A stretch of 64,000 nucleotides of DNA. It comes from Diacronema lutheri. Taxonomy: Eukaryota > Haptophyta > Pavlovophyceae > Pavlovales > Pavlovaceae. Location of the stretch: contig JAGTXO010000010.1 in assembly GCA_019448385.1 (NCBI GenBank), forward strand, positions 1-64,000. Direction: 5' to 3'. The notes beneath the pieces are model-generated. The model made no database searches. It saw only the letters and a program-made list of their open reading frames with translations, and was not told the DNA's origin. Shown here piece after piece: positions 1 through 53,807 of the stretch. Numbering within the stretch: position 1 is the first letter of the stretch; every line of letters begins with the position of its first letter. A program made the position numbers and the translations under genes.

Positions 1-391
<391 letters not shown>

Positions 392-825
392 TTCGACGCA
401 GCAGACCGCCGCCGACGTGGCGAAGCCTACGGGCAAGCGCGTGGTCGAGGCTGCCCGACGTGTCAGTCCGCACTCGGGCCCAGGCCGGGGTCATGCGCGT
501 GCCCTACGTGGAGCTCACGCGAGACCGGCACTGGCATGATGGCAGGCAGCAGACTGAGCGGCCCTACATCCCTACAGTCACATCAGTGTGGTCTTCGGAC
601 GCTTGCGACTTGCGAGTTTTTAGGAGTCCGGCCTTTTCCATCCTCTGTTCTTTATGTCCGGGTCGGTCGCGCAAGACGCACGCATCCCCCACGCTCGTCC
701 CGGTAGGGCGGCGGCGTTCGAGTCGACCGGGCGGAGCGTGCCGCTGCCCCGCTTGTCGAAAGCGCGCCTGCTCGCGGGTGCTCACGAGGCGCGCGACGGC
801 GCGCACGCGCGCCGAGCGCGCAGAC
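392..825. other. Subtelomeric non-coding stretch
   Basis: Unique GC-rich sequence between the telomere and the first gene. An open frame extends upstream of the next gene from 460, but its translation is Arg-rich and shows no recognisable domain, so I treat it as 5' leader. I see no repeat or RNA gene here. Confidence 0.5.

Positions 826-14649: not shown

Positions 14650-14704
<55 letters not shown>
14650..14704. repeat. Poly-C tract, 55 bp
   Basis: A 55-base uninterrupted C homopolymer lies immediately after the end of the hydrolase gene (which runs on the other strand, so G-rich in its 3' region). Exact length is probably unreliable. Confidence 0.85.
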
Positions 14705-44138: not shown

Positions 44139-46649
44139 CTACGCGTCATCACCGTACGTCCACTGCTTGGCGCCGTCCAGGTCGCCATCGTGGAAGGCGC
44201 GCAGCTCGCCGCGCGCGACGGCCCAATACTCGCGCACCGTCGCGCGCAGGAAGTATTGGTCGTGCGAGATGACGACGACGGCGCCGCCGAAGCGCGCGAG
44301 CGCGTCGATGAGGACGTCGATCGTCTCGAGGTCCAAGTGGTTGGTCGGCTCGTCGAGCACGACGAGGTGCGGTGGCTGCCATGCGAGCTCGCAAAACGCG
44401 ACACGGCTCTTCTGCCCTCCCGACAGCGAGCGCATCTTGCGGAACGCGCCGCCGTCGACGAGGCCGAACGCGGCGAGGCGCGTGCGCGCCTCAAGCTCCT
44501 TGGTCCCCGGGAAGCGCGCGAGCAGGTGCTCCAGCGCCGACTTGTCGAGGTCGAGCTGGTCGACATGGTGCTGCGCGAAGGAGACGACCTGCGCTGCGCG
44601 GTTGAGGCTCGCCTCGCCGCTGAGCGGCGGCAGCTCGCCCGTCATCGTGCGAAGCAGCGTCGTCTTGCCCGCGCCGTTGGCGCCGAGGATCCCCACGCGC
44701 GATGTCGCGTGCAGCTGCGCGCACACGGCGCGCACGAGCGGCGCGTGGCCCGTGTAGCCGATCGCCGCGCTGTCGAGGGCAAGGAGCTGGCTGCGCTTGA
44801 GCGGCGGCGGCGGCGGGAAGTCGAGCTTGACGCGCGCGAAGCCCGACTCCTTGTCCGGGTCCTCGAGCAGCCCCTTCTCCTCCATGCGGCGCAGCGCCTG
44901 CTCGCGGCTTTTCACCTGCGCCATCGCAGACGGCGTCCGTTTCGCTTTCCGGTTGTGCTCGGCGGAATTTTTGGACAAATCGAACTTGTCGACCATCGCC
45001 TGCAGCGACGCGACCTCCGCCTGCTGCGCCTCGTACGCCCGCCGCGCCGCCACGTACTCCTCCGCCTGCACGCGCACGAACGTGGACACGTCGCCGCGGT
45101 ACGCGCTGAGCGTGCGGCGCGCGAGGAGGAGCACGTCCGTGCACACCGCGTCGAGGAAGTCGCGGTCGTGCGAGACGATGAGGCAGGTCTGCTCGCGCTG
45201 GCGCAAAAAGGCCGTCAGCCAGCGCAGCGCGACCAGGTCGAGGTGGTTCTGCCCGCGCGCGCGCCGCGGCGGCGGGCAGGCGGGCGGGCGGGCGGCGGCC
45301 GTCGATAATTGGCGCCTGGCGCAATGCGCGCGCGCTCGCGGGCGCGGGCGCGCGCGCGGGCGCGCGCGCGCGCGCACGGTGGGCTCGTCGAGGAGGAGCA
45401 GGTCGCACCGCACGAACAGCGCCGCTGCAAGGCACACGCGCACGCGCCACCCGCCGGAGAGCGCGCGAACGGGCTGCGCGCGCATCCGCTCGTCCACGCC
45501 GAGCCCGTGCAGGATCTGACACGCGCGCTGCTCGGCGCTGTCGGCGGAGAGCGCGGCGAGCGCGTCGAGCGTCTGCACGAGCTGCTTGCTCAGCGCTGCG
45601 CTGTCGCCCTCCGCCGCCGTCGCCGCGTCCGACGCCGCGTCGCTGCCGTGCGCGCCGTCCGCCGAGCCGCCGCCGCCGCCGCCGCCGATCGCCGCCTCGA
45701 GCTCACGCCGCCGGCGCTGTAGCACGCGCAGCTCGACGTCGGCCTTGAGCACGGTGGCGAGCGGCGTGGCGTCGAGGTCGACCGCGCCCTCCTGCCGCAC
45801 GTGCACCACGCGCAGCGCCTCCGGGAAGCCGACGAGCTCATAGGCGGCAATGGCTCGCAGCAGGCTGCTCTTTCCGGCGCCATTCTGACCAAGGAGACCG
45901 TACTTTCGCCCACCGGACAGGCGGAGCGATGCGCTCTCGAGCAGCGGGCGGCCGTCGGGCGCGAGGAGGGTGAAGCTCTTGACGTGCACGTCGCGCGACG
46001 CGTTCCGGTTGCTCGCGCGCGCGCGCATGTACTTCTTGACCGCCGCCTCCGCCTCGGCCTCCTCGGCGAGCGCCGCGTCGCGCGCGGCCACGTCCGCCGC
46101 CGCGCGCAGGCGCGCGCGTGTCTCGGCGAGCGACGTGAGGCGCGGGCCGTCGGGCGCGGCGCCGTCCTCGCCCGCGCCCGCCCTGCCCGCCGCCGCGTCG
46201 ATCGTCGCGTTCCCGTACTTGGCCGAGTTGTCCGAATTGCCGAACGCGCCGCCGCCGCTCTGGCTCGTCATCAGCTCTGCCACGAGCTCCGGCAGCTCGC
46301 CCTCGCCGCTCGCGAGCAGGATGGGCACGTCGAGCGCGGCGGGCGTCGATGGAACGACCGGTGCGCCAATCACGCCCATTGCGTGCGCCGCGCCCGCCGC
46401 GCCCGTTGCTGGCACGTCGCGCGCGCGCCTCAAGATGTCGGCGCACAGCCGCGCGAGCAGTGCGCCGTCGCCGACCGCGAGCACGTCGTCGAGCAGCGGT
46501 GCGATGGCCTCGAGCACGTCGTCATCGGCCTGGCCCTCGTCGAGCGCCGAGTCGATCGTTCCCGCGACGTACTCGATTATCGCATCGTCGAGCGCGCCCG
46601 AATCGAGCCCGGCTTCCGTCACCGCCGCGCGCACGGCGTTCGCGGCCAT
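44139..46649 (-). CDS. ABCF-type (GCN20/ABCF3-like) ATPase
   Basis: Exons 46649-45378 and 45248-44139 join at DEPT/NHLD to about 793 aa. There is no membrane domain; two ABC cassettes lie in tandem. Cassette 1: Walker A GQNGAGKSS, signature LSGGWRVRV, Walker B LLLLDEPTNHLD, switch His in IVSHDRDF. Cassette 2: GANGAGKTT, LSGGQKSRV, LVVLDEPTNHLD, VISHDQYF. The linker contains KFDLSKNSAEHNRKAKR and ESGFARVKLDFPPPPPL, typical of ABCF3/GCN20. The first about 200 residues form the N-terminal helical extension. ABCF proteins act on ribosomes; GCN20 supports activation of the eIF2alpha kinase GCN2. The start sits 43 bp from the left arm of the inverted-repeat element, so its promoter is probably inside that arm. 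Confidence 0.93.
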   Translation of the reverse strand: MAANAVRAAVTEAGLDSGALDDAIIEYVAGTIDSALDEGQADDDVLEAIAPLLDDVLAVGDGALLARLCADILRRARDVPATGAAGAAHAMGVIGAPVVPSTPAALDVPILLASGEGELPELVAELMTSQSGGGAFGNSDNSAKYGNATIDAAAGRAGAGEDGAAPDGPRLTSLAETRARLRAAADVAARDAALAEEAEAEAAVKKYMRARASNRNASRDVHVKSFTLLAPDGRPLLESASLRLSGGRKYGLLGQNGAGKSSLLRAIAAYELVGFPEALRVVHVRQEGAVDLDATPLATVLKADVELRVLQRRRRELEAAIGGGGGGGSADGAHGSDAASDAATAAEGDSAALSKQLVQTLDALAALSADSAEQRACQILHGLGVDERMRAQPVRALSGGWRVRVCLAAALFVRCDLLLLDEPTVRARARPRARPRPRARAHCARRQLSTAAARPPACPPPRRARGQNHLDLVALRWLTAFLRQREQTCLIVSHDRDFLDAVCTDVLLLARRTLSAYRGDVSTFVRVQAEEYVAARRAYEAQQAEVASLQAMVDKFDLSKNSAEHNRKAKRTPSAMAQVKSREQALRRMEEKGLLEDPDKESGFARVKLDFPPPPPLKRSQLLALDSAAIGYTGHAPLVRAVCAQLHATSRVGILGANGAGKTTLLRTMTGELPPLSGEASLNRAAQVVSFAQHHVDQLDLDKSALEHLLARFPGTKELEARTRLAAFGLVDGGAFRKMRSLSGGQKSRVAFCELAWQPPHLVVLDEPTNHLDLETIDVLIDALARFGGAVVVISHDQYFLRATVREYWAVARGELRAFHDGDLDGAKQWTYGDDA

Positions 46650-46691
46650 CGTACCGCGTGCCCCGAGCGGTGGGAGTATAGGGGTTTCCAC

Positions 46692-47327
46692 TCATACGCC
46701 TCAGGAGACGTATCTTGCACGCGGCGAGGCGCACGCCTGAAAAGGGCCACCGAGGGCACATTATGCGGATTCGGCGGCATGGCCGTATCAAGGGCGGGTG
46801 GGCGTGGACGGACGGACGCGACAGCAGGGGAGAGACGCGGGTGGAGAGGACGAGGAGCGGCGCGCGCTTGGGCGTGTGGAGAGGACGAGGAGCGGCGCAC
46901 TTGGGATTTTGACGACCACCGTCCATGCCTCGTGCGTATCGGCCAGCGCCACGCCGGCCAGTGGCTCGCATCGAGCGGGCGGCGGACCGCGGCGGCCGGC
47001 GCGCATCGCGCGTCGGATCGCGCGCCAGAAATTCCGCGCAAAAGCCGTGCGCATCGAGCTCACCGGCGGCGCGCGATCATCATACTCGGCTCGCTGCGAG
47101 GGATCATCGCTCTCTCGGCTCTCGGCCTGGCGGGTGACCCTATACGCCCGCTCGGGCGCAATCGCCGCAGCCCGGCCCAGCCGCGCCGGCGACGTCGGAC
47201 GACGACGACCTCGGCAGCCACGCCTCGGTGGTTGCTCGCGCCACGTATAGAGACTACGCGCTGCGCATCGCCAGGCTGCCATGCAGCCAACGCGCGCGGG
47301 CGGGCGCTCAAGGGACGAGGCGCGGAT
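46692..47327 (+). repeat. Left arm of 636-bp inverted repeat
   Basis: Begins TCATACGCCTCAGG and ends CGAGGCGCGGAT. It is the reverse complement of 48200-48835, with one difference noticed (near 46736). It contains a partial tandem duplication of GTGGAGAGGACGAGGAGCGG. Confidence 0.9.
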
Positions 47328-47358
47328 TATGCGAGTCGTGCGGCCGCGCACAAAAGCG

Positions 47359-48199
47359 TCACCAGGCCACTCGGTGCACGCCAAGGCTGCTCGCGGGTCT
47401 GCTCGCGGATCCACAGAAACTCGCGGCTTGCTGCGCGGCTGCACGCCTGGCTTTGTCGGCTGGAACCCAAGGGTTAGCCAGCTCGGCCGCGGTGTTAAAA
47501 CCAGAATCAAAAAACTTCTTGAAGAAAGCGCAGATGAGCACGTTGCACCGCGGCCCGCAAGGGCCCACGTCCTCGCGATTGCAACCGCACTTGGTCACGT
47601 GCTTAAGCGTCGAGGAGTACACGGACATCTCCGCCAGCGGCAAACACGCGCGAAGGCTGCAGGCAGCGGGCGGCCACGCGCCTGTGTTCACGACCGGCGG
47701 CGCGTCGGTCTTGAACGTGACGCCAATGGCGGCCCGGCCGGCCTGCGCGGCCTTCCATTCGAAGACGCCAAAGCCGTCCTTAAAAACACCGTTTCGCGTG
47801 TGTTGCGCGACATCTGCGCATCGCTCGAGGGCTGCGCAGCGTCGGCTGGGTCGGTGCCCTCGCGTGAGGCACCGAGCGCGCCGTGGGCATGCTTGCGCCT
47901 TTTCGCGAGCGCGGCAGCTTCAACTTGGCCGGCGAGCGCGCACGCCTGGTGCACGATAGCTTCTTGCAACTCGATATACGTCGCGGCCGGCTTAGGCAGA
48001 AGGCCCTTGCAGCCCAGGCCGTCGGGAGTCTTGCGAAAGTTGCGCGTCATTGTGCACACGTGATTCTTGTCGGTCAGCGAGTAGCTGCCTTTGAAGCCAG
48101 TCTGCCACATTTCCCTGAAGTCGGTGTCCGCACCGATGCTCAACGTAGGCGCCGCGCCCTCGACGGCCGGCTGGAGCGTGACGCGGCACGGCGACGATC
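47359..48199 (-). CDS. Unrecognised coding sequence inside the inverted-repeat element
   Basis: Two open stretches on the minus strand look coding, judged by mixed residue composition. The first reads VTLQPAVEGAAPTLSIGADT, then MWQTGFKGSYSLTDKNHVCT, and FRKTPDGLGCKGLLPKPAAT. The second reads NGVFKDGFGVFEWKAAQAGR, then VTFKTDAPPVVNTGAWP, and a Cys-rich block KCGCNREDVGPCGPRCNVLI. They are in different frames and could be joined by an intron near 47830-47940 or separated by a frameshift. No ATG precedes the first; an in-frame stop lies just upstream at the arm junction, so the 5' end looks truncated or starts in the arm by splicing. I cannot name the family; no DDE, HUH or tyrosine recombinase motif is evident. 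It may be the cargo or a decayed transposase. Confidence 0.4.
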
Positions 48200-48835
48200 A
48201 TCCGCGCCTCGTCCCTTGAGCGCCCGCCCGCGCGCGTTGGCTGCATGGCAGCCTGGCGATGCGCAGCGCGTAGTCTCTATACGTGGCGCGAGCAACCACC
48301 GAGGCGTGGCTGCCGAGGTCGTCGTCGTCCGACGTCGCCGGCGCGGCTGGGCCGGGCTGCGGCGATTGCGCCCGAGCGGGCGTATAGGGTCACCCGCCAG
48401 GCCGAGAGCCGAGAGAGCGATGATCCCTCGCAGCGAGCCGAGTATGATGATCGCGCGCCGCCGGTGAGCTCGATGCGCACGGCTTTTGCGCGGAATTTCT
48501 GGCGCGCGATCCGACGCGCGATGCGCGCCGGCCGCCGCGGTCCGCCGCCCGCTCGATGCGAGCCACTGGCCGGCGTGGCGCTGGCCGATACGCACGAGGC
48601 ATGGACGGTGGTCGTCAAAATCCCAAGTGCGCCGCTCCTCGTCCTCTCCACACGCCCAAGCGCGCGCCGCTCCTCGTCCTCTCCACCCGCGTCTCTCCCC
48701 TGCTGTCGCGTCCGTCCGTCCACGCCCACCCGCCCTTGATACGGCCATGCCGCCGAATCCGCATAATGTGCCCTCGGTGGCCCTTTTCAGGTGTGCGCCT
48801 CGCCGCGTGCAAGATACGTCTCCTGAGGCGTATGA
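48200..48835 (-). repeat. Right arm of 636-bp inverted repeat
   Basis: Reverse complement of 46692-47327. It ends at GAGGCGTATGA before unique sequence ACACATCCACC. Confidence 0.9.
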
Positions 48836-49059
48836 ACACATCCACCTAGGTTGGCGGTGGCACGTTTTTGCGACTGTGCCGTTTGCACTTTGCAATTTGA
48901 GTGGGTCGCCTCCGGGCGGCAGGCGGCAGCTGACAGGCACGACACGGACGCGCGGATCGACTTCCCGCGACGCCGCACCGCAATTATGCTTCGCGCGCAT
49001 GGCATGCCCAAGCCGGGCACGCGCCCGTCCGCCGCCGCCGTCCAGTGAGCCGTCCACCG

Positions 49060-52000
49060 CTACGGATCGCGCGGCGCGCGCGCCGGCACGGTGAGCGAGC
49101 CGATCGGCGCGACAAACTCGTCCGAGTCAGCGTCCCACCGCCCGACTGAGCCCTGCTCCAGGTAAAAAGCCGTTGCCTCGCCGTACCGGCGATACGGCGC
49201 GCCGGGCGCCTGCAACTTGGCCGCGTCCTGCCAGTCGAGCGAGAGCCACGCGAAACCGTCGCGGTCGGTGCGAAAGTGGAGCGTCCGCGCCTCGCGGCTG
49301 CCCGAGTAGATGCGCGCCGCCCACTGCGACAGCCGTTGCTGCCCTCGACCGATGCGCACCTCACACCACAGCGCGCATTCGCCCGCGCGCAGCGGCGGGC
49401 CGCCCTGCGCGGCCGCGTTCGCCGCGCGCGCCGCGCGCGCGCCCGCCGTCGCGCCGACGCGGCCGGGCGCGGCGGGGCCGGCGCCGTCGGGCACGGCGCA
49501 GCCGTACACGAGGCGGAAGCGCGCGCCGGCGGCGCGTAGCAGCGCGGCGAGCAGCAGCGCGAAGGCGTTGCCGTCCGCCGGCGCGGCGAGCGCCTCGGCG
49601 GCGCTCGGCAGCGCGGCGCGCACCGCGCCGGCGCTTGCGGGCAGCGGCGCGCGCACGGCGAGCTGCAGGCCGGCGGCCTCGGCCTCGGCGCGCGCCTCGG
49701 CCGTCAGCCCACCATCGGCGAGCGCCGGCGCGCCGCCCGCAAGCGCCTCACCGCCGCGACGCTCGCGGTGCGCGCGCACGGCGAGGGTGAGCGTCTCGTT
49801 GAGCGCGGGCGGCAGGCGCGTGCGCTCGGGCAGCGCAAGCATGCGCGTGAGCTCGAGGAGAAGCGCGCTGTCGGAAAGTGCCGGAATCAGCTCGAAGCCC
49901 GAGAGCACACTGTCCACGTATCGGAACACATCGGACTGCTGGCTCGCGTTCAGCGGCGGTTCGACGTCGGGCAGCGCGTGCACGCCGTCCGCCGCGCCGC
50001 CCTCCGCGTCGAGCGGCGGCTCGACGTCGCGCGCACCCTCGCCGCCGTCCGCCGCGCCGGCGCGATCGGCGCCGTCCGCCTCGCCTCCGCCCCCGCCGCC
50101 ATCACCATCACCATCACCATCACCATCACCATCACCGGCGCCGCCGTCCGCGCCGCCGCCATCGCCGCCCGGCGCAGCCGCCGCCGGCGGCATTTGCGCT
50201 TTCACGATGGCGAGCAGCGCTTCAAACGCCTGCTGGCGGCGGAACTCGACCCGCCGCGCCTCGCGGTGCGCGCGCGCCGACGCCTTGAAGAGCGCGAGCG
50301 CGCAGGGGTGCAAGTCGGCGGCGCTCAGGTTCGCCGCGCCGAGCAGCTCGATCGCGACCTCGTCCTCGTCGCCGTCAAGCGGCAGCTCCTGCCAGCTGAT
50401 CGCCTCGGAGACGGCCGCGTCGAGGCTGCGGTTGAGCGCGCGCACGGCCTCGCCGTCGAGCTGCGCGTCGAGCGGCAGCTCGGCGCGGAGCGGCGCGCGC
50501 GCGCGCGCAAATTCGGCCGCCTCGAACGCGTCGCCGCCGTCCGCGCCGCGCTCGGCGTCCGAATCGACACGCGTCGGCTCCGCGCCGCCGTCGCCGCCAC
50601 CCGTGCCGGCGGGCAACACGCGGAGGAGGCCGTCCGTCCACAGCCGTGCGCGCACGCGGCGCATCGCCTCGCGCATCGCCGCCGCGTGCGACGTGCTCCG
50701 GTCGGCGCGGTGCGCGCGCACGGCGAGCGCGAGCGCGACGCGCACGGTCTGTCGGATCTGCAGCCCGTCCGCGTCGAGCATCTGGAGCAGCTCCTGAAGC
50801 ACCGCGTCGTCGGTCATGTTGGTCGGCAGGTCGTATTCGGCGAGCGTCGCGTTCACCAGCTCCGTCGTGAGCGCGAGCAGCAGCGCGCGCTGCTCGTCGT
50901 CCTCGGCGCTCGACGCCGCAGCGGACGCGGCGGACGCGGCGGCCGCGGCCGCGGCCGCGGCGGACGCGGGCGCGGGCGCGAGCGCGTCCGCCGGCGCGGC
51001 GCCGTCGCCGTCGCCGGCGGCGGCGGACGGCACCTCCGCGTCCGCCGCGGCCGCGCTGCCGTCGAGCGCCGCGCCGTCCTCGGAGGCGGCCGGCGACTCC
51101 GCCATCGCCCGGCCACTCGCCTCCGCGCGCGCGCCGCCGTCCGCCGCCGCCGCCGTCTCGCCCGCAACGCGCGCGCCGCCGACCGCGCGCGCGCCCGCGC
51201 GCACGAGCGAGCGCAGCTGGGCGAAAGCGTCCGCGACAGCGCGCCGCTGCTGGCGGTAATGCGCGACCGCGCGCACCCACACGGGTCGCGCGCTCGGCAA
51301 GATGGTCATCTGCCCGTGCCCGAGCATCGTCACGCCAATCTCATATGTGACATCGTCGTCACTCATCTCGGCGGGAAGCTCCGACCTGCCCAACGCCTGG
51401 TAGACGATCGCCACGACGGCCTCGAGATCGGGCACGACGCGCGCGCCGGCGCCGTCGCCGGCGCCCTGCGCGAGCGCGCCCGCGCCGTCCGCGCCGCCGC
51501 GCGCATCGGCGGCAAGGCGCGGCGCGGCGCGCGCGCCGGCGCCGTCGCCGGCGCCCTGCGCGAGCGCGCCCGCGCCGTCCGCGCCGCCGCGCGCATCGGC
51601 GGCAAGGCGCGGCGCGGCGCGCGCGCCGGACACGACGCCGGCGCCCTGCGCGAGCGCGCCCGCGCCGTCCGCGCCGCCGCGCGCATCGGCGGCAAGGCGC
51701 GGCGCGGCGCGCGCGCCGGGCACGACGCCCGCCGCAGCGGCGGTGCCCACCCACGCGTCGAGCGCCAGCTGGTAAGCGAGCAGCACGGCGGGCGAGTCAG
51801 CGGCAAGGCCGAGCGCGCGTGAGCCCGCGCCCGCCGCGCCGCTGCCCGCGCGCACGCGGGCGGCGAGCGCGGCGAGGCGCGCGCTGCCCGCGCCGCCGGC
51901 GTTGGCGCCAGCCCCGGCGCCGGCACCGCCGCGCGCGCTCGCGCCGTCCAAGCCGGGCGCGGCGATGGCCGTCGCCGCGCGCAGCTCGCGGCAGAGCAGC

Positions 52001-53328
52001 GCCGCGCCGCCGCCGGGCGCGTCGACGCGCGGCGCGGGCGCGTCGGGCGCGAGGCACGAGCCGCCGTGCGCGCCGTACGGCAGCCCGTCGGTGCCGCGCG
52101 CGCGCGCGCCGCGCAGGTCGCCGCCACCCGCGCCGCCGCCCACGCCGCCGCCCACGCTGCTGCTGCTGCCGGCACCGCCACCGACGCCGCGCGGCTCGTG
52201 CGGCTGCGTCGCTGTGTGGTATACGACGGCGAGTACTAATAAAACGGCCTGCGCGCACCGGACCCATCCGGCGGAGGGCGCGTCGGACGCACCCTTCGCC
52301 GACGCGACGGTGCGCGCGCGCGACGGCCACGCCGCGCCGCCCACCAGCCGCGCCGTTGGACCCGCCGGCGCGGCGCGCACGGCCGCCGGCGGCGCGTCGG
52401 CCGGCGGCGCGCCGATGGCCGTAGCCGCGGCCGGCGCGCCCTCCGCCATGCTGCCGGGCTCGCGCGCGCGCGGCTCGGTCGCGTCGGCGAAGGGCGTCGC
52501 GCCGGCGCCGTGCGCCGTCTGCGCGGTGTGCTGCGCCGCGCTCATGCCGAGCGCGCGCGCCGCACGCGCGCGCGCGCCACTCGCGCCGAGTGGTAGCAGC
52601 GCGGCCGCGCCGACGCCGGCGCCGACGCCGCAGAGGAGGGCGAGGCCATGCGCAGCGCCACCGAGCAGCGTGCCGGCGGCGACGAGAATCCATGGCAGCG
52701 CCCCGGGCGGCGCGCCCACTGAGAGCACGTCCACCATCCGCAACACCTGCGCCGCGAGCTGTGCGCCGCTGGCCGCGCCGCCCGCGCCCGCCGGCGCGCG
52801 CGGCTCGCCGCCAGCGGCGCTCGCGCCGAGCGCGCCCGGCGAGGCGTTCAGGTGCACGACGAGCGTGACGATGCAGACGGTCAGCGGCTCAAAGACGCGT
52901 AGAGGCAGCGCGTCGCACGCGCCGCCCGCCGTGCAGCGCGCGTCAAGCCGCCGGCCGAGCGCGAGCCACTGCGCGCAGCCAATGCCCACGCCACAGCCGC
53001 ACAGCACGCGCGCATATGCGCCGGGCGCATCGGCGAAGGTGCGGCGCTCGAGGAGCGCGCCAAACGTGGCAAAAAACCACGCGCCGAGCGCCAGGCCTAA
53101 GCTCAGGCTGCTCGCGCCGAACGCTGCCGCGAGCGCGCGGCCGAGCGCCGTGCCGCTCAGCGCCGCGTCGGGCGCGGCCGCCACGAGCAGCGCGGCGCAG
53201 ACAATGGCGGCGGTGATAGGCGGAAGGCGGACGGATCCAAGGGAAAATGAGGCGTACAGCCGCGCGACGAGCGCGGCCACCGCCAGCACGGCAAGCACGT
53301 CGAGCCATGGCTCGTGCAACGCGCGCAT
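49060..53328 (-). CDS. Multi-span membrane protein with four novel repeats and transglutaminase-like C terminus
   Basis: About 1,422 aa, apparently one exon, from the ATG at 53328. The first about 270 residues hold several hydrophobic spans (LDVLAVLAVAALVARLY, AAIVCAALLVAAA, LGLALGAWFFATF, LPWILVAAGTLLGGAAHGLALL), and a further one lies near residue 375 (AVLLVLAVVYHT). A Gly/Ala-rich region with three tandem 33-residue units (51441-51720) follows. Then come four degenerate copies of a roughly 60-residue module (LP..M(S/T)DD.V..E...ML...LAVRAHR). The end (GNAFALLLAALLRAAGARFRLVYG, GECALWCEVRIG, WLSLDWQD) follows the transglutaminase-like core layout, but the catalytic Cys position is occupied by Asn/Ala, so it may be inactive. 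No function is known. An upstream in-frame start at 53406 is possible. Confidence 0.65.
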   Translation of the reverse strand: MRALHEPWLDVLAVLAVAALVARLYASFSLGSVRLPPITAAIVCAALLVAAAPDAALSGTALGRALAAAFGASSLSLGLALGAWFFATFGALLERRTFADAPGAYARVLCGCGVGIGCAQWLALGRRLDARCTAGGACDALPLRVFEPLTVCIVTLVVHLNASPGALGASAAGGEPRAPAGAGGAASGAQLAAQVLRMVDVLSVGAPPGALPWILVAAGTLLGGAAHGLALLCGVGAGVGAAALLPLGASGARARAARALGMSAAQHTAQTAHGAGATPFADATEPRAREPGSMAEGAPAAATAIGAPPADAPPAAVRAAPAGPTARLVGGAAWPSRARTVASAKGASDAPSAGWVRCAQAVLLVLAVVYHTATQPHEPRGVGGGAGSSSSVGGGVGGGAGGGDLRGARARGTDGLPYGAHGGSCLAPDAPAPRVDAPGGGAALLCRELRAATAIAAPGLDGASARGGAGAGAGANAGGAGSARLAALAARVRAGSGAAGAGSRALGLAADSPAVLLAYQLALDAWVGTAAAAGVVPGARAAPRLAADARGGADGAGALAQGAGVVSGARAAPRLAADARGGADGAGALAQGAGDGAGARAAPRLAADARGGADGAGALAQGAGDGAGARVVPDLEAVVAIVYQALGRSELPAEMSDDDVTYEIGVTMLGHGQMTILPSARPVWVRAVAHYRQQRRAVADAFAQLRSLVRAGARAVGGARVAGETAAAADGGARAEASGRAMAESPAASEDGAALDGSAAAADAEVPSAAAGDGDGAAPADALAPAPASAAAAAAAAASAASAAASSAEDDEQRALLLALTTELVNATLAEYDLPTNMTDDAVLQELLQMLDADGLQIRQTVRVALALAVRAHRADRSTSHAAAMREAMRRVRARLWTDGLLRVLPAGTGGGDGGAEPTRVDSDAERGADGGDAFEAAEFARARAPLRAELPLDAQLDGEAVRALNRSLDAAVSEAISWQELPLDGDEDEVAIELLGAANLSAADLHPCALALFKASARAHREARRVEFRRQQAFEALLAIVKAQMPPAAAAPGGDGGGADGGAGDGDGDGDGDGDGGGGGGEADGADRAGAADGGEGARDVEPPLDAEGGAADGVHALPDVEPPLNASQQSDVFRYVDSVLSGFELIPALSDSALLLELTRMLALPERTRLPPALNETLTLAVRAHRERRGGEALAGGAPALADGGLTAEARAEAEAAGLQLAVRAPLPASAGAVRAALPSAAEALAAPADGNAFALLLAALLRAAGARFRLVYGCAVPDGAGPAAPGRVGATAGARAARAANAAAQGGPPLRAGECALWCEVRIGRGQQRLSQWAARIYSGSREARTLHFRTDRDGFAWLSLDWQDAAKLQAPGAPYRRYGEATAFYLEQGSVGRWDADSDEFVAPIGSLTVPARAPRDP
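51441..51720. repeat. Tandem 99-bp coding repeat, about three units
   Basis: Units encode GAGxxxGARAAPRLAADARGG... blocks on the minus strand and differ at few positions. Confidence 0.85.
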
Positions 53329-53807
53329 GACGAGGCTCCCCCAAATTGAGCACGACGTACACGCGCAATCGCGAATGCCGATTAATGACGCGGGAAGCCT
53401 TTTCAAAAGAGGCGCAGTGACGCTTGCCAGCGCGCATCCCGGCGTCTCGTCGATTGGCGGTGAGCTGTCGTGAAAAGGTCAGTAACCCAAAATTTCTCGC
53501 CGTTATGAGGAGCGGCCATAGGTGTCGGAACATACCGGAATCCACTCGAACTCCGAAGTCAAGCCGGCAACCGTTCAGGTAGTAGTGCGGTGGGGGACCA
53601 CGCGCGAAGTCTGGATGTTGCTCTTTTCTTGCTCTTTTTTTGGGGGGTGCGCAAGCCACCGCGCTTGTCGTCTGCCGCTCGTCCGCGCACCGCTGGCCTC
53701 TCCGCAAAGCGTGCTGCCTGGCCTCATCAGCCCGCCCTTTACATCCTGCCGCTGCCGTGATGCCTCCGCCGCCCATCGCCCGGCCGCGAGCCGCCGCCGC
53801 CCGCCGC
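53329..53807. other. Intergenic spacer
   Basis: This 479-bp stretch is between the start of the membrane protein gene and the end of the phospholipase-like gene, both on the minus strand. It is less GC-rich near 53470-53640. I see no supported gene. Confidence 0.4.

What the first reader, a model, noticed from the sequence alone, without database searches (positions are those of the whole stretch)
46692..48835. Near-perfect 636-bp inverted repeat flanking an unrecognised gene
Two arms of identical length (636 bp) and about 99.8% identity lie 872 bp apart in opposite orientation, directly upstream of an ABCF gene. Equal arm length, sharp edges and near-identity argue for a single young event: a foldback/MULE-type transposon with long terminal inverted repeats, or a palindromic duplication. 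The centre codes for a protein I cannot place. The left arm edge is 43 bp from the ABCF start, so it may supply that promoter.
Basis: partly seen in the sequence, partly recalled or inferred. Interest (0 to 1): 0.72.

Follow-up and report, generated by a model that had tools for sequence, protein, structure and literature searches.

The report
Stripped-down jumping gene beside ABCF gene
The long mirrored repeat is a real, recently inserted DNA transposon that has lost most of its insides, and a 9.5-kb relative carrying more of its genes sits elsewhere in the same genome, so the find is solid but of a familiar kind.

Summary
The inverted repeat is real: arms 46692-47330 and 48197-48835 (639 bp, two mismatches). 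It is not the whole element. Both flanks share 18 further bp with a second locus, giving an element at 46674-48853 (2,180 bp) with a perfect 7-bp target-site duplication (GCGGTGG). The second locus, C89:633334-642794 in the same genome, is a 9,461-bp element with the same ends and arms and its own 7-bp duplication (GGATGCT). The window copy keeps its left 748 bp and right 1,300 bp (about 99.7% identical). A 132-bp stretch with no other match in the genome replaces the remaining 7.4 kb. The window copy is therefore a young, internally deleted, non-autonomous DNA transposon; its 'unrecognised gene' is a fragment of a gene of the long copy. The long copy encodes a Ulp1-type protease and a weak cysteine cluster of the kind associated with KDZ (Kyakuja-Dileera-Zisupton) transposons. 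Its 7-bp duplications and one CA/TG-type end fit Kyakuja. No KDZ catalytic core was detected, so I call it KDZ-like and do not file it as a member. MULE or foldback is not supported; artefact is very unlikely. The insertion lies 17 bp (plus duplication) upstream of the probable ABCF start codon. The genome is very probably Diacronema lutheri.

The parts
46667..46673 (.). Left target-site duplication GCGGTGG (7 bp)
   Evidence: Identical to 48854-48860; chance of a 7-bp match at window composition 2.7e-4
46674..46691 (+). Left outer end of the element, 18 bp (GAGTATAGGGG...), outside the inverted arms
   Evidence: Identical in the C89 copy; 7 of 18 bases match the reverse complement of the right outer end
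46692..47330 (+). Left inverted arm, 639 bp
46837..46898 (+). Two copies of a 27-bp motif 35 bp apart inside the arm (46837-46863, 46872-46898); candidate transposase binding sites (inference)
   Evidence: family D6, 96% identical; mirrored at 48629-48690 (family D7)
47331..47421 (+). Left inner sequence shared with the 9.46-kb copy
   Evidence: 748 bp from the element end with 2 differences
47422..47553 (.). 132-bp stretch in place of about 7.4 kb of the long copy; no other copy found in the genome
47554..48196 (+). Right inner sequence shared with the 9.46-kb copy
   Evidence: 1,300 bp to the right end with 3 differences
47688..48143 (-). Probable first exon(s) of the element's own minus-strand gene; no Pfam family
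   Evidence: Open in both copies; codon-position G+C pattern fits the minus strand; Pfam 0 families
47359..47691 (-). Probable continuation of that gene, cysteine-rich, running into the 132-bp stretch
   Evidence: First 48 residues 94% identical to C89:641489-641632; Pfam 0 families; in-phase GT-AG joins to the stretch above exist, none confirmed
48197..48835 (-). Right inverted arm, 639 bp
48836..48853 (-). Right outer end, 18 bp (reverse complement CAACCTAGGTGGAT...)
   Evidence: Identical in the C89 copy; a similar end on a diverged relic at C89:1352519-1352537
48854..48860 (.). Right target-site duplication GCGGTGG
44139..46649 (-). ABCF-type ATPase gene downstream; probable ATG with first base 46649, 17 bp from the duplicated target
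   Evidence: ABC_tran with two stretches, plus ABC_tran_Xtn; strong third-position G+C to about 46640; open frame

Best explanation
Window 46674-48853 is a non-autonomous, internally deleted copy of a cut-and-paste DNA transposon family. It has 18-bp outer ends, 639-bp inverted arms just inside them, and makes 7-bp target-site duplications. A longer relative (9,461 bp) is at C89:633334-642794. Inferred mechanism: a transposase supplied in trans recognises the ends and arms, excises a copy and inserts it at a staggered 7-bp cut; the window copy arose by an internal deletion patched with 132 bp, or from another element variant. The transposase is most likely of, or near, the KDZ (Kyakuja) superfamily. 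The insertion put 2.2 kb between the ABCF coding region and its native upstream DNA, so that gene is probably now transcribed from inside the element, or through it. Shown: ends, arms, duplications, second copy, deletion structure, Ulp1 domain. Inferred: transposition in trans, the superfamily (about 0.6), the effect on ABCF.
For: Second locus with the same arms 9.4 kb apart and different flanks. Both flanks share exactly 18 further bp with the window copy, after which the sequences part, and each copy is bounded by its own perfect 7-bp duplication, GCGGTGG and GGATGCT. Left 748 bp and right 1,300 bp are about 99.7% and 99.8% identical; the middle differs. Long copy: Peptidase_C48/Ulp1, E 2.3e-10, 41.1 bits against a cut-off of 20.7, matching solved Ulp1 and SENP proteases; CxC3 'cysteine cluster associated with KDZ transposases', E 0.0014 but below the cut-off (18.9 against 26.6 bits). 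Two Kyakuja families of Laccaria make 7-bp duplications and have CA..TG ends without terminal inverted repeats (PMC12730594, passages); the right end here reads CAACCTAGG on its own strand, and so does the relic's end. KDZ-type elements are reported from algae: Chlamydomonas (PMC8226300, passages; PMC10828217, passages) and Ectocarpus (PMC12477816, passages).
Against: No KDZ catalytic core (PF18758): no match in the own genome (its 14 control genomes were silent too) and none in six frames between the arms of the long copy at E up to 10. A genome search with the CxC3 family also gave no match at E 0.001, although the weak CxC3 stretch is there, so that tool's misses prove little. CxC3 stays under its cut-off, and joining its two predicted exons lowered the score slightly (17.7 bits). 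The left end begins GA, not CA. Fungal Kyakuja lacks terminal inverted repeats, and a Chlamydomonas Kyakuja insertion made an 8-bp duplication. Ulp1 proteases also ride on other transposons (recalled). Only two young copies were found, so no amplification is seen.
Confidence: 0.87

Rival explanations
1. Same element and same deletion history, but the mobilising transposase is of another superfamily that carries Ulp1 (MULE, EnSpm, Ginger; recalled) or makes 7-bp duplications (hAT7).
For: Ulp1 is not specific to KDZ (recalled); hAT7 elements with 7-bp duplications are reported from rust fungi (PMC12730594, passages); no transposase core of any superfamily was found between the arms of the long copy.
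Against: The only transposon-related Pfam match besides Ulp1 is a KDZ-associated one; no MULE, hAT, EnSpm or integrase domain in six frames at E up to 10 (stops read as X and introns not removed, so sensitivity is limited); the ends are not CAC..GTG as in EnSpm.
Confidence: 0.25
2. MULE or foldback transposon.
For: Long inverted repeats and a deleted centre look MULE-like (inference).
Against: 7-bp duplications in 2 of 2 copies, where MULEs usually make 8-11 bp (recalled); no MULE domain; the arms are subterminal, with unlike 18-bp outer ends.
Confidence: 0.05
3. Assembly artefact: a fold-back read or a collapsed palindrome.
For: Near-identical arms in what is probably a PacBio assembly (PMC8379373, passages).
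Against: The same arms with the same edges lie at a second locus 9.4 kb apart with other flanks; both loci have target-site duplications; the arms differ between the loci at positions 44 and 269; coverage was about 315-fold with Illumina polishing if the genome is D. lutheri.
Confidence: 0.01
4. The 132-bp stretch is original element sequence and the C89 copy is rearranged there; the window copy then derives from a different full-length variant.
For: On the minus strand the open frame of the centre gene runs through the 132 bp without a stop; no other source was found in the genome.
Against: At the left breakpoint the diverged relic agrees with the C89 copy, not with the window copy, so that side is derived in the window copy; third-position G+C over the stretch is lower than in the frame before it (0.64 against 0.84).
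Confidence: 0.25

Closest known systems
Kyakuja elements of the KDZ superfamily (fungi, Chlamydomonas)
   Same: 7-bp target-site duplication (fungal Kyakuja); a CA/TG-type end on one side; KDZ-type cysteine cluster (weak); reported from an alga
   Different: 639-bp inverted arms inside the ends; left end GA; KDZ catalytic core not found; Chlamydomonas Kyakuja-3 made an 8-bp duplication
Zisupton (KDZ)
   Same: Large multi-exon DNA transposon with inverted repeats
   Different: Zisupton makes 8-bp duplications (PMC12730594, passages); core not found here
MULE / Pack-MULE (recalled)
   Same: Long inverted repeats and internal deletion derivatives; the long copy carries a 368-bp stretch 86% identical to a separate locus on C49, as Pack-type elements carry host fragments
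   Different: 7-bp duplications, no MULE transposase found, subterminal arms
Internal-deletion derivatives such as Ds of the Ac/Ds system (recalled)
   Same: Ends kept, coding interior lost, presumably mobilised in trans
   Different: Different superfamily; trans-mobilisation not shown here

Membership tests
Cut-and-paste DNA transposon with inverted repeats | Defined ends shared by copies at different loci, each flanked by its own target-site duplication of constant length | tested here: met
   2 of 2 young copies: 7-bp GCGGTGG and GGATGCT; the relic has one end only and was not tested
Cut-and-paste DNA transposon with inverted repeats | Inverted repeats at the ends | tested here: met
   639-bp arms 18 bp inside the ends; the outer 18 bp match at 7 of 18 positions only
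KDZ superfamily | KDZ transposase core (PF18758) | tested here: not met
   No match in the own genome (control silent, so sensitivity unproven) nor in six frames between the arms of the 9.46-kb copy; multi-exon genes and the foreign 368 bp in the long copy limit the test
KDZ superfamily | CxC-type cysteine cluster | tested here: inconclusive
   CxC3 E 0.0014, 18.9 bits, cut-off 26.6; 17.7 bits on the joined exons; no match in the genome search
Kyakuja | 7-bp target-site duplication | tested here: met
   criterion from PMC12730594 (passages); 8 bp reported for a Chlamydomonas Kyakuja insertion (PMC10828217, passages)
Kyakuja | 5'-CA..TG-3' ends, no terminal inverted repeats | tested here: inconclusive
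   Right end CAACC; left end GAGTA; long inverted arms present but subterminal
MULE | 8-11 bp duplication and MULE transposase | tested here: not met
   7 bp in 2 of 2 copies; no MULE domain; criterion recalled
Foldback transposon | Arms made of many short tandem subrepeats | tested here: not met
   Inside each arm one search shows one 27-bp motif in two copies; criterion recalled

The most novel reading that the evidence does not exclude
A previously undescribed transposon lineage in a haptophyte alga that has KDZ-type accessory parts (CxC cluster, Ulp1 protease, 7-bp duplications) but no recognisable KDZ core. Its 639-bp subterminal arms are kept identical within each copy by arm-to-arm conversion: at arm position 269 both window arms read A and both C89 arms read G. 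One deleted copy has taken over the promoter position of an ABCF gene.
Probability: 0.25. Interest if true: 0.5.

Novelty: new member of a known kind. Interest (0 to 1): 0.33.

Why it matters
It turns an odd inverted repeat into a defined transposon family with exact ends, target-site duplications and a longer relative that carries protein domains. The host is probably a haptophyte, a group for which none of the KDZ-name papers listed here (40 of 68, 10 of 14) is about such elements. It gives a clean natural case to test whether a young insertion at a start codon drives or silences the gene, and how long inverted arms stay identical.

Tried and rejected
KDZ core search: PF18758 and PF18804 gave no match in the own genome, and the 14 control genomes were silent too. 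Six-frame Pfam scans between the arms of the long copy at E up to 10 gave only Ulp1 and the weak CxC3. The two CxC exons joined across a predicted intron did not raise the score. The centre proteins have no Pfam family. Neither the centre protein (48 pattern matches, 0 confirmed) nor the Ulp1 protein (5 pattern matches, 0 confirmed) has a relative in viral contigs. The terminus pattern with up to 2 mismatches gave 7 places, against 3 for the backward control: 2 are the known right ends, 1 the relic, 4 others. Of those 4, C81:48828 shows no match to the long copy and no long inverted repeat within 20 kb; the other three (C3, C47, C74) were not examined. C9:978094-978449 (65% to part of the long copy) aligned at protein level over 28 residues only and led nowhere. 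No structure was predicted: the long copy's proteins came from a source that the structure tool does not list, and the window's centre protein has no relative but the C89 copy to align.

Full report
OBSERVATION. The tool extends it to 46692-47344 / 48183-48835 with 8 mismatches, seven of them in the innermost 17 positions; the clean arms are 639 bp, 46692-47330 and 48197-48835, with mismatches at arm positions 44 and 637. Of the other inverted pairs shown (24 of 26), none exceeds 31 nt.

GENOME. The window is contig C86, bases 1-64000, of a 43,492,796-base assembly in 103 contigs. D. lutheri NIVA-4/92 is published as 43,502,671 bp in 103 contigs with 73.25% G+C (PMC8379373, passages); the window has 74.4%. 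The identity is therefore very likely but was not proven by any named record.

SECOND COPY. A DNA search of the own genome with the whole finding gave nine matches. Besides the window's own, the left part (query 1-730) lies at C89:633352-634081 and the right part (query 863-2144) at C89:641495-642776, with the arms matching each other as expected; two more matches are a diverged relic. Aligned at both loci, the two elements share 18 more bases outside each arm and then part. The element is thus 46674-48853 (2,180 bp) in the window and C89:633334-642794 (9,461 bp) on C89. Each is flanked by its own perfect 7-bp direct repeat: GCGGTGG and GGATGCT. On C89 an eighth base (G) also matches if the first base of the element is counted; the window copy fixes the edge at 7. 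At the window's base composition a 7-bp match has a chance of 2.7e-4; two at fixed positions make about 7e-8, before allowing for some freedom in placing the edge. The two outer 18-mers are of equal length but match at only 7 of 18 positions, so the long inverted repeats are subterminal.

WHAT THE WINDOW COPY LOST. Its left 748 bp have 2 differences from the long copy and its right 1,300 bp have 3; one of the latter is the third base from the junction. Between them the long copy has about 7.4 kb and the window copy 132 bp (47422-47553). That stretch matched nothing else in the genome. At the left breakpoint an old relic agrees with the long copy, so the window copy is the derived one on that side.

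AGE AND ARM HOMOGENISATION. Across the 639-bp arms of both copies three columns vary. Position 637 differs between left and right arms in both copies. Position 44 is private to the window's left arm. Position 269 is A in both window arms and G in both C89 arms. One site is thin evidence, but it is what arm-to-arm conversion within a copy would leave. The copies are young; no rate is at hand to date them.

OTHER COPIES. Arm and end searches found no further young copy; the tool scores only its best candidates, so this is a lower bound. One relic, 77.5% identical, has its left end at C89:1352537, with the terminus CAACCTAGGGGGATAGG, on the minus strand. It is split: element positions 92-759 lie at C89:1352504-1351861 and positions 1033-1694 at C89:1320538-1319554, in the same order and strand. 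The N-terminus of the long copy's cysteine-cluster protein is recognisable there at 61% with one stop. The stretch between, about C89:1320756-1351791, begins and ends with sequence that also forms the ends of other contigs, so a large repeat probably inserted into the relic.

WHAT THE LONG COPY ENCODES. Plus strand: a Ulp1-type cysteine protease (Peptidase_C48, E 2.3e-10; best solved relatives Ulp1 and SENP1/2). Upstream of it is a cysteine-rich protein with a weak CxC3 match (E 0.0014, 18.9 bits against a cut-off of 26.6; 17.7 bits for the joined exons). Soon after the CxC3 stretch lie 368 bp (L009:3117-3484) that are 86% identical to C49:209177-209544, inside a long open frame at that locus, with host-like third-position G+C. 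The same search gave 60 matches in all; besides the element itself and C49 they are short or weak (67-87% identity, bits of 77 or less), as expected of coiled-coil-like code. I read the 368 bp as a captured host gene fragment that interrupts the transposase gene, which would help explain the missing core; that is inference. No transposase core of any superfamily was found in six frames between the arms. The Ulp1 protein has no second match in the genome, and a 3.1-kb interior stretch (L009:5600-8700) has only three short weak ones.

SUPERFAMILY. Two Kyakuja families of the fungus Laccaria make 7-bp duplications, end in CA..TG and lack terminal inverted repeats; Zisupton makes 8 bp (PMC12730594, passages). 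A Kyakuja insertion in Chlamydomonas made 8 bp with imperfect inverted repeats (PMC10828217, passages). Giant transposons of up to 30 kb, KDZ among them, are reported from Ectocarpus; many carry extra genes, and frequently the transposase gene is broken (PMC12477816, passages). The 7-bp duplications, the CAACC end and the CxC3 match fit; the missing core and the GA left end do not. I therefore call it KDZ-like (about 0.6) and do not file it as a member.

EFFECT ON THE NEIGHBOUR. The ABCF reading frame (44139-46691 on the minus strand; ABC_tran with two stretches) has its first plausible ATG at 46649. Only 17 native bases and the 7-bp duplication separate it from the element. The next long open frame upstream ends at 49060, so the gap before insertion was about 223 bp by these coordinates. 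The element now stands between the gene and that DNA. Whether the gene is silenced, read through, or driven from the element cannot be told from sequence.

LITERATURE. A search for the three KDZ names found 68 papers, of which 40 were listed. Searches with Diacronema/Pavlova or haptophyte words found 2, 9, 4 and 14, of which 10 were listed. By their titles and abstract openings none of those listed is about such elements in haptophytes; one (PMC10828217) names both haptophytes and Kyakuja but concerns Chlamydomonas and Phaeodactylum. Only listings were read, apart from passages of the papers cited. The held text of the D. lutheri paper does not contain 'transpos'. Many subscription papers, including the original KDZ paper, are not held, so absence from print is not shown.

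Noticed in passing
window 1-393 (contig C86 start); contig ends L055-L063: The window starts with a telomere-like array of CCCTCA units (48 exact units in the first 600 bp). Of 10 contig ends viewed, 5 carry such arrays, with three different units: CCCTCA (C86 start, C49 end), CCCTTA (C89 start) and CCCCTA (both ends of C9, mixed with CCCTA at one). Different telomere units on different chromosomes of one genome would be unusual.
   Followed up: partly
L009:3117-3484 (C89:635916-636283): 368 bp inside the long copy are 86% identical to C49:209177-209544, a coiled-coil-like open frame: probable capture of a host gene fragment by the transposon.
   Followed up: partly
C89:1320756-1351791 (L053, L054, L030, L012): About 31 kb splitting the old relic; its edges match the ends of contigs C89, C49, C86 and C81, so it looks like a giant multi-copy repeat at which the assembly breaks.
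   Followed up: partly
L009 about 1390-1465: A run of at least 55 G inside the long copy; the window has a 55-base C run at 14650-14704.
   Followed up: no
window 49060-53406 (-): A 1,448-residue Ala/Gly-rich open frame upstream of the element with internal repeats; its only Pfam match (TrAA12-like, 18 bits) is below the curated cut-off.
   Followed up: no
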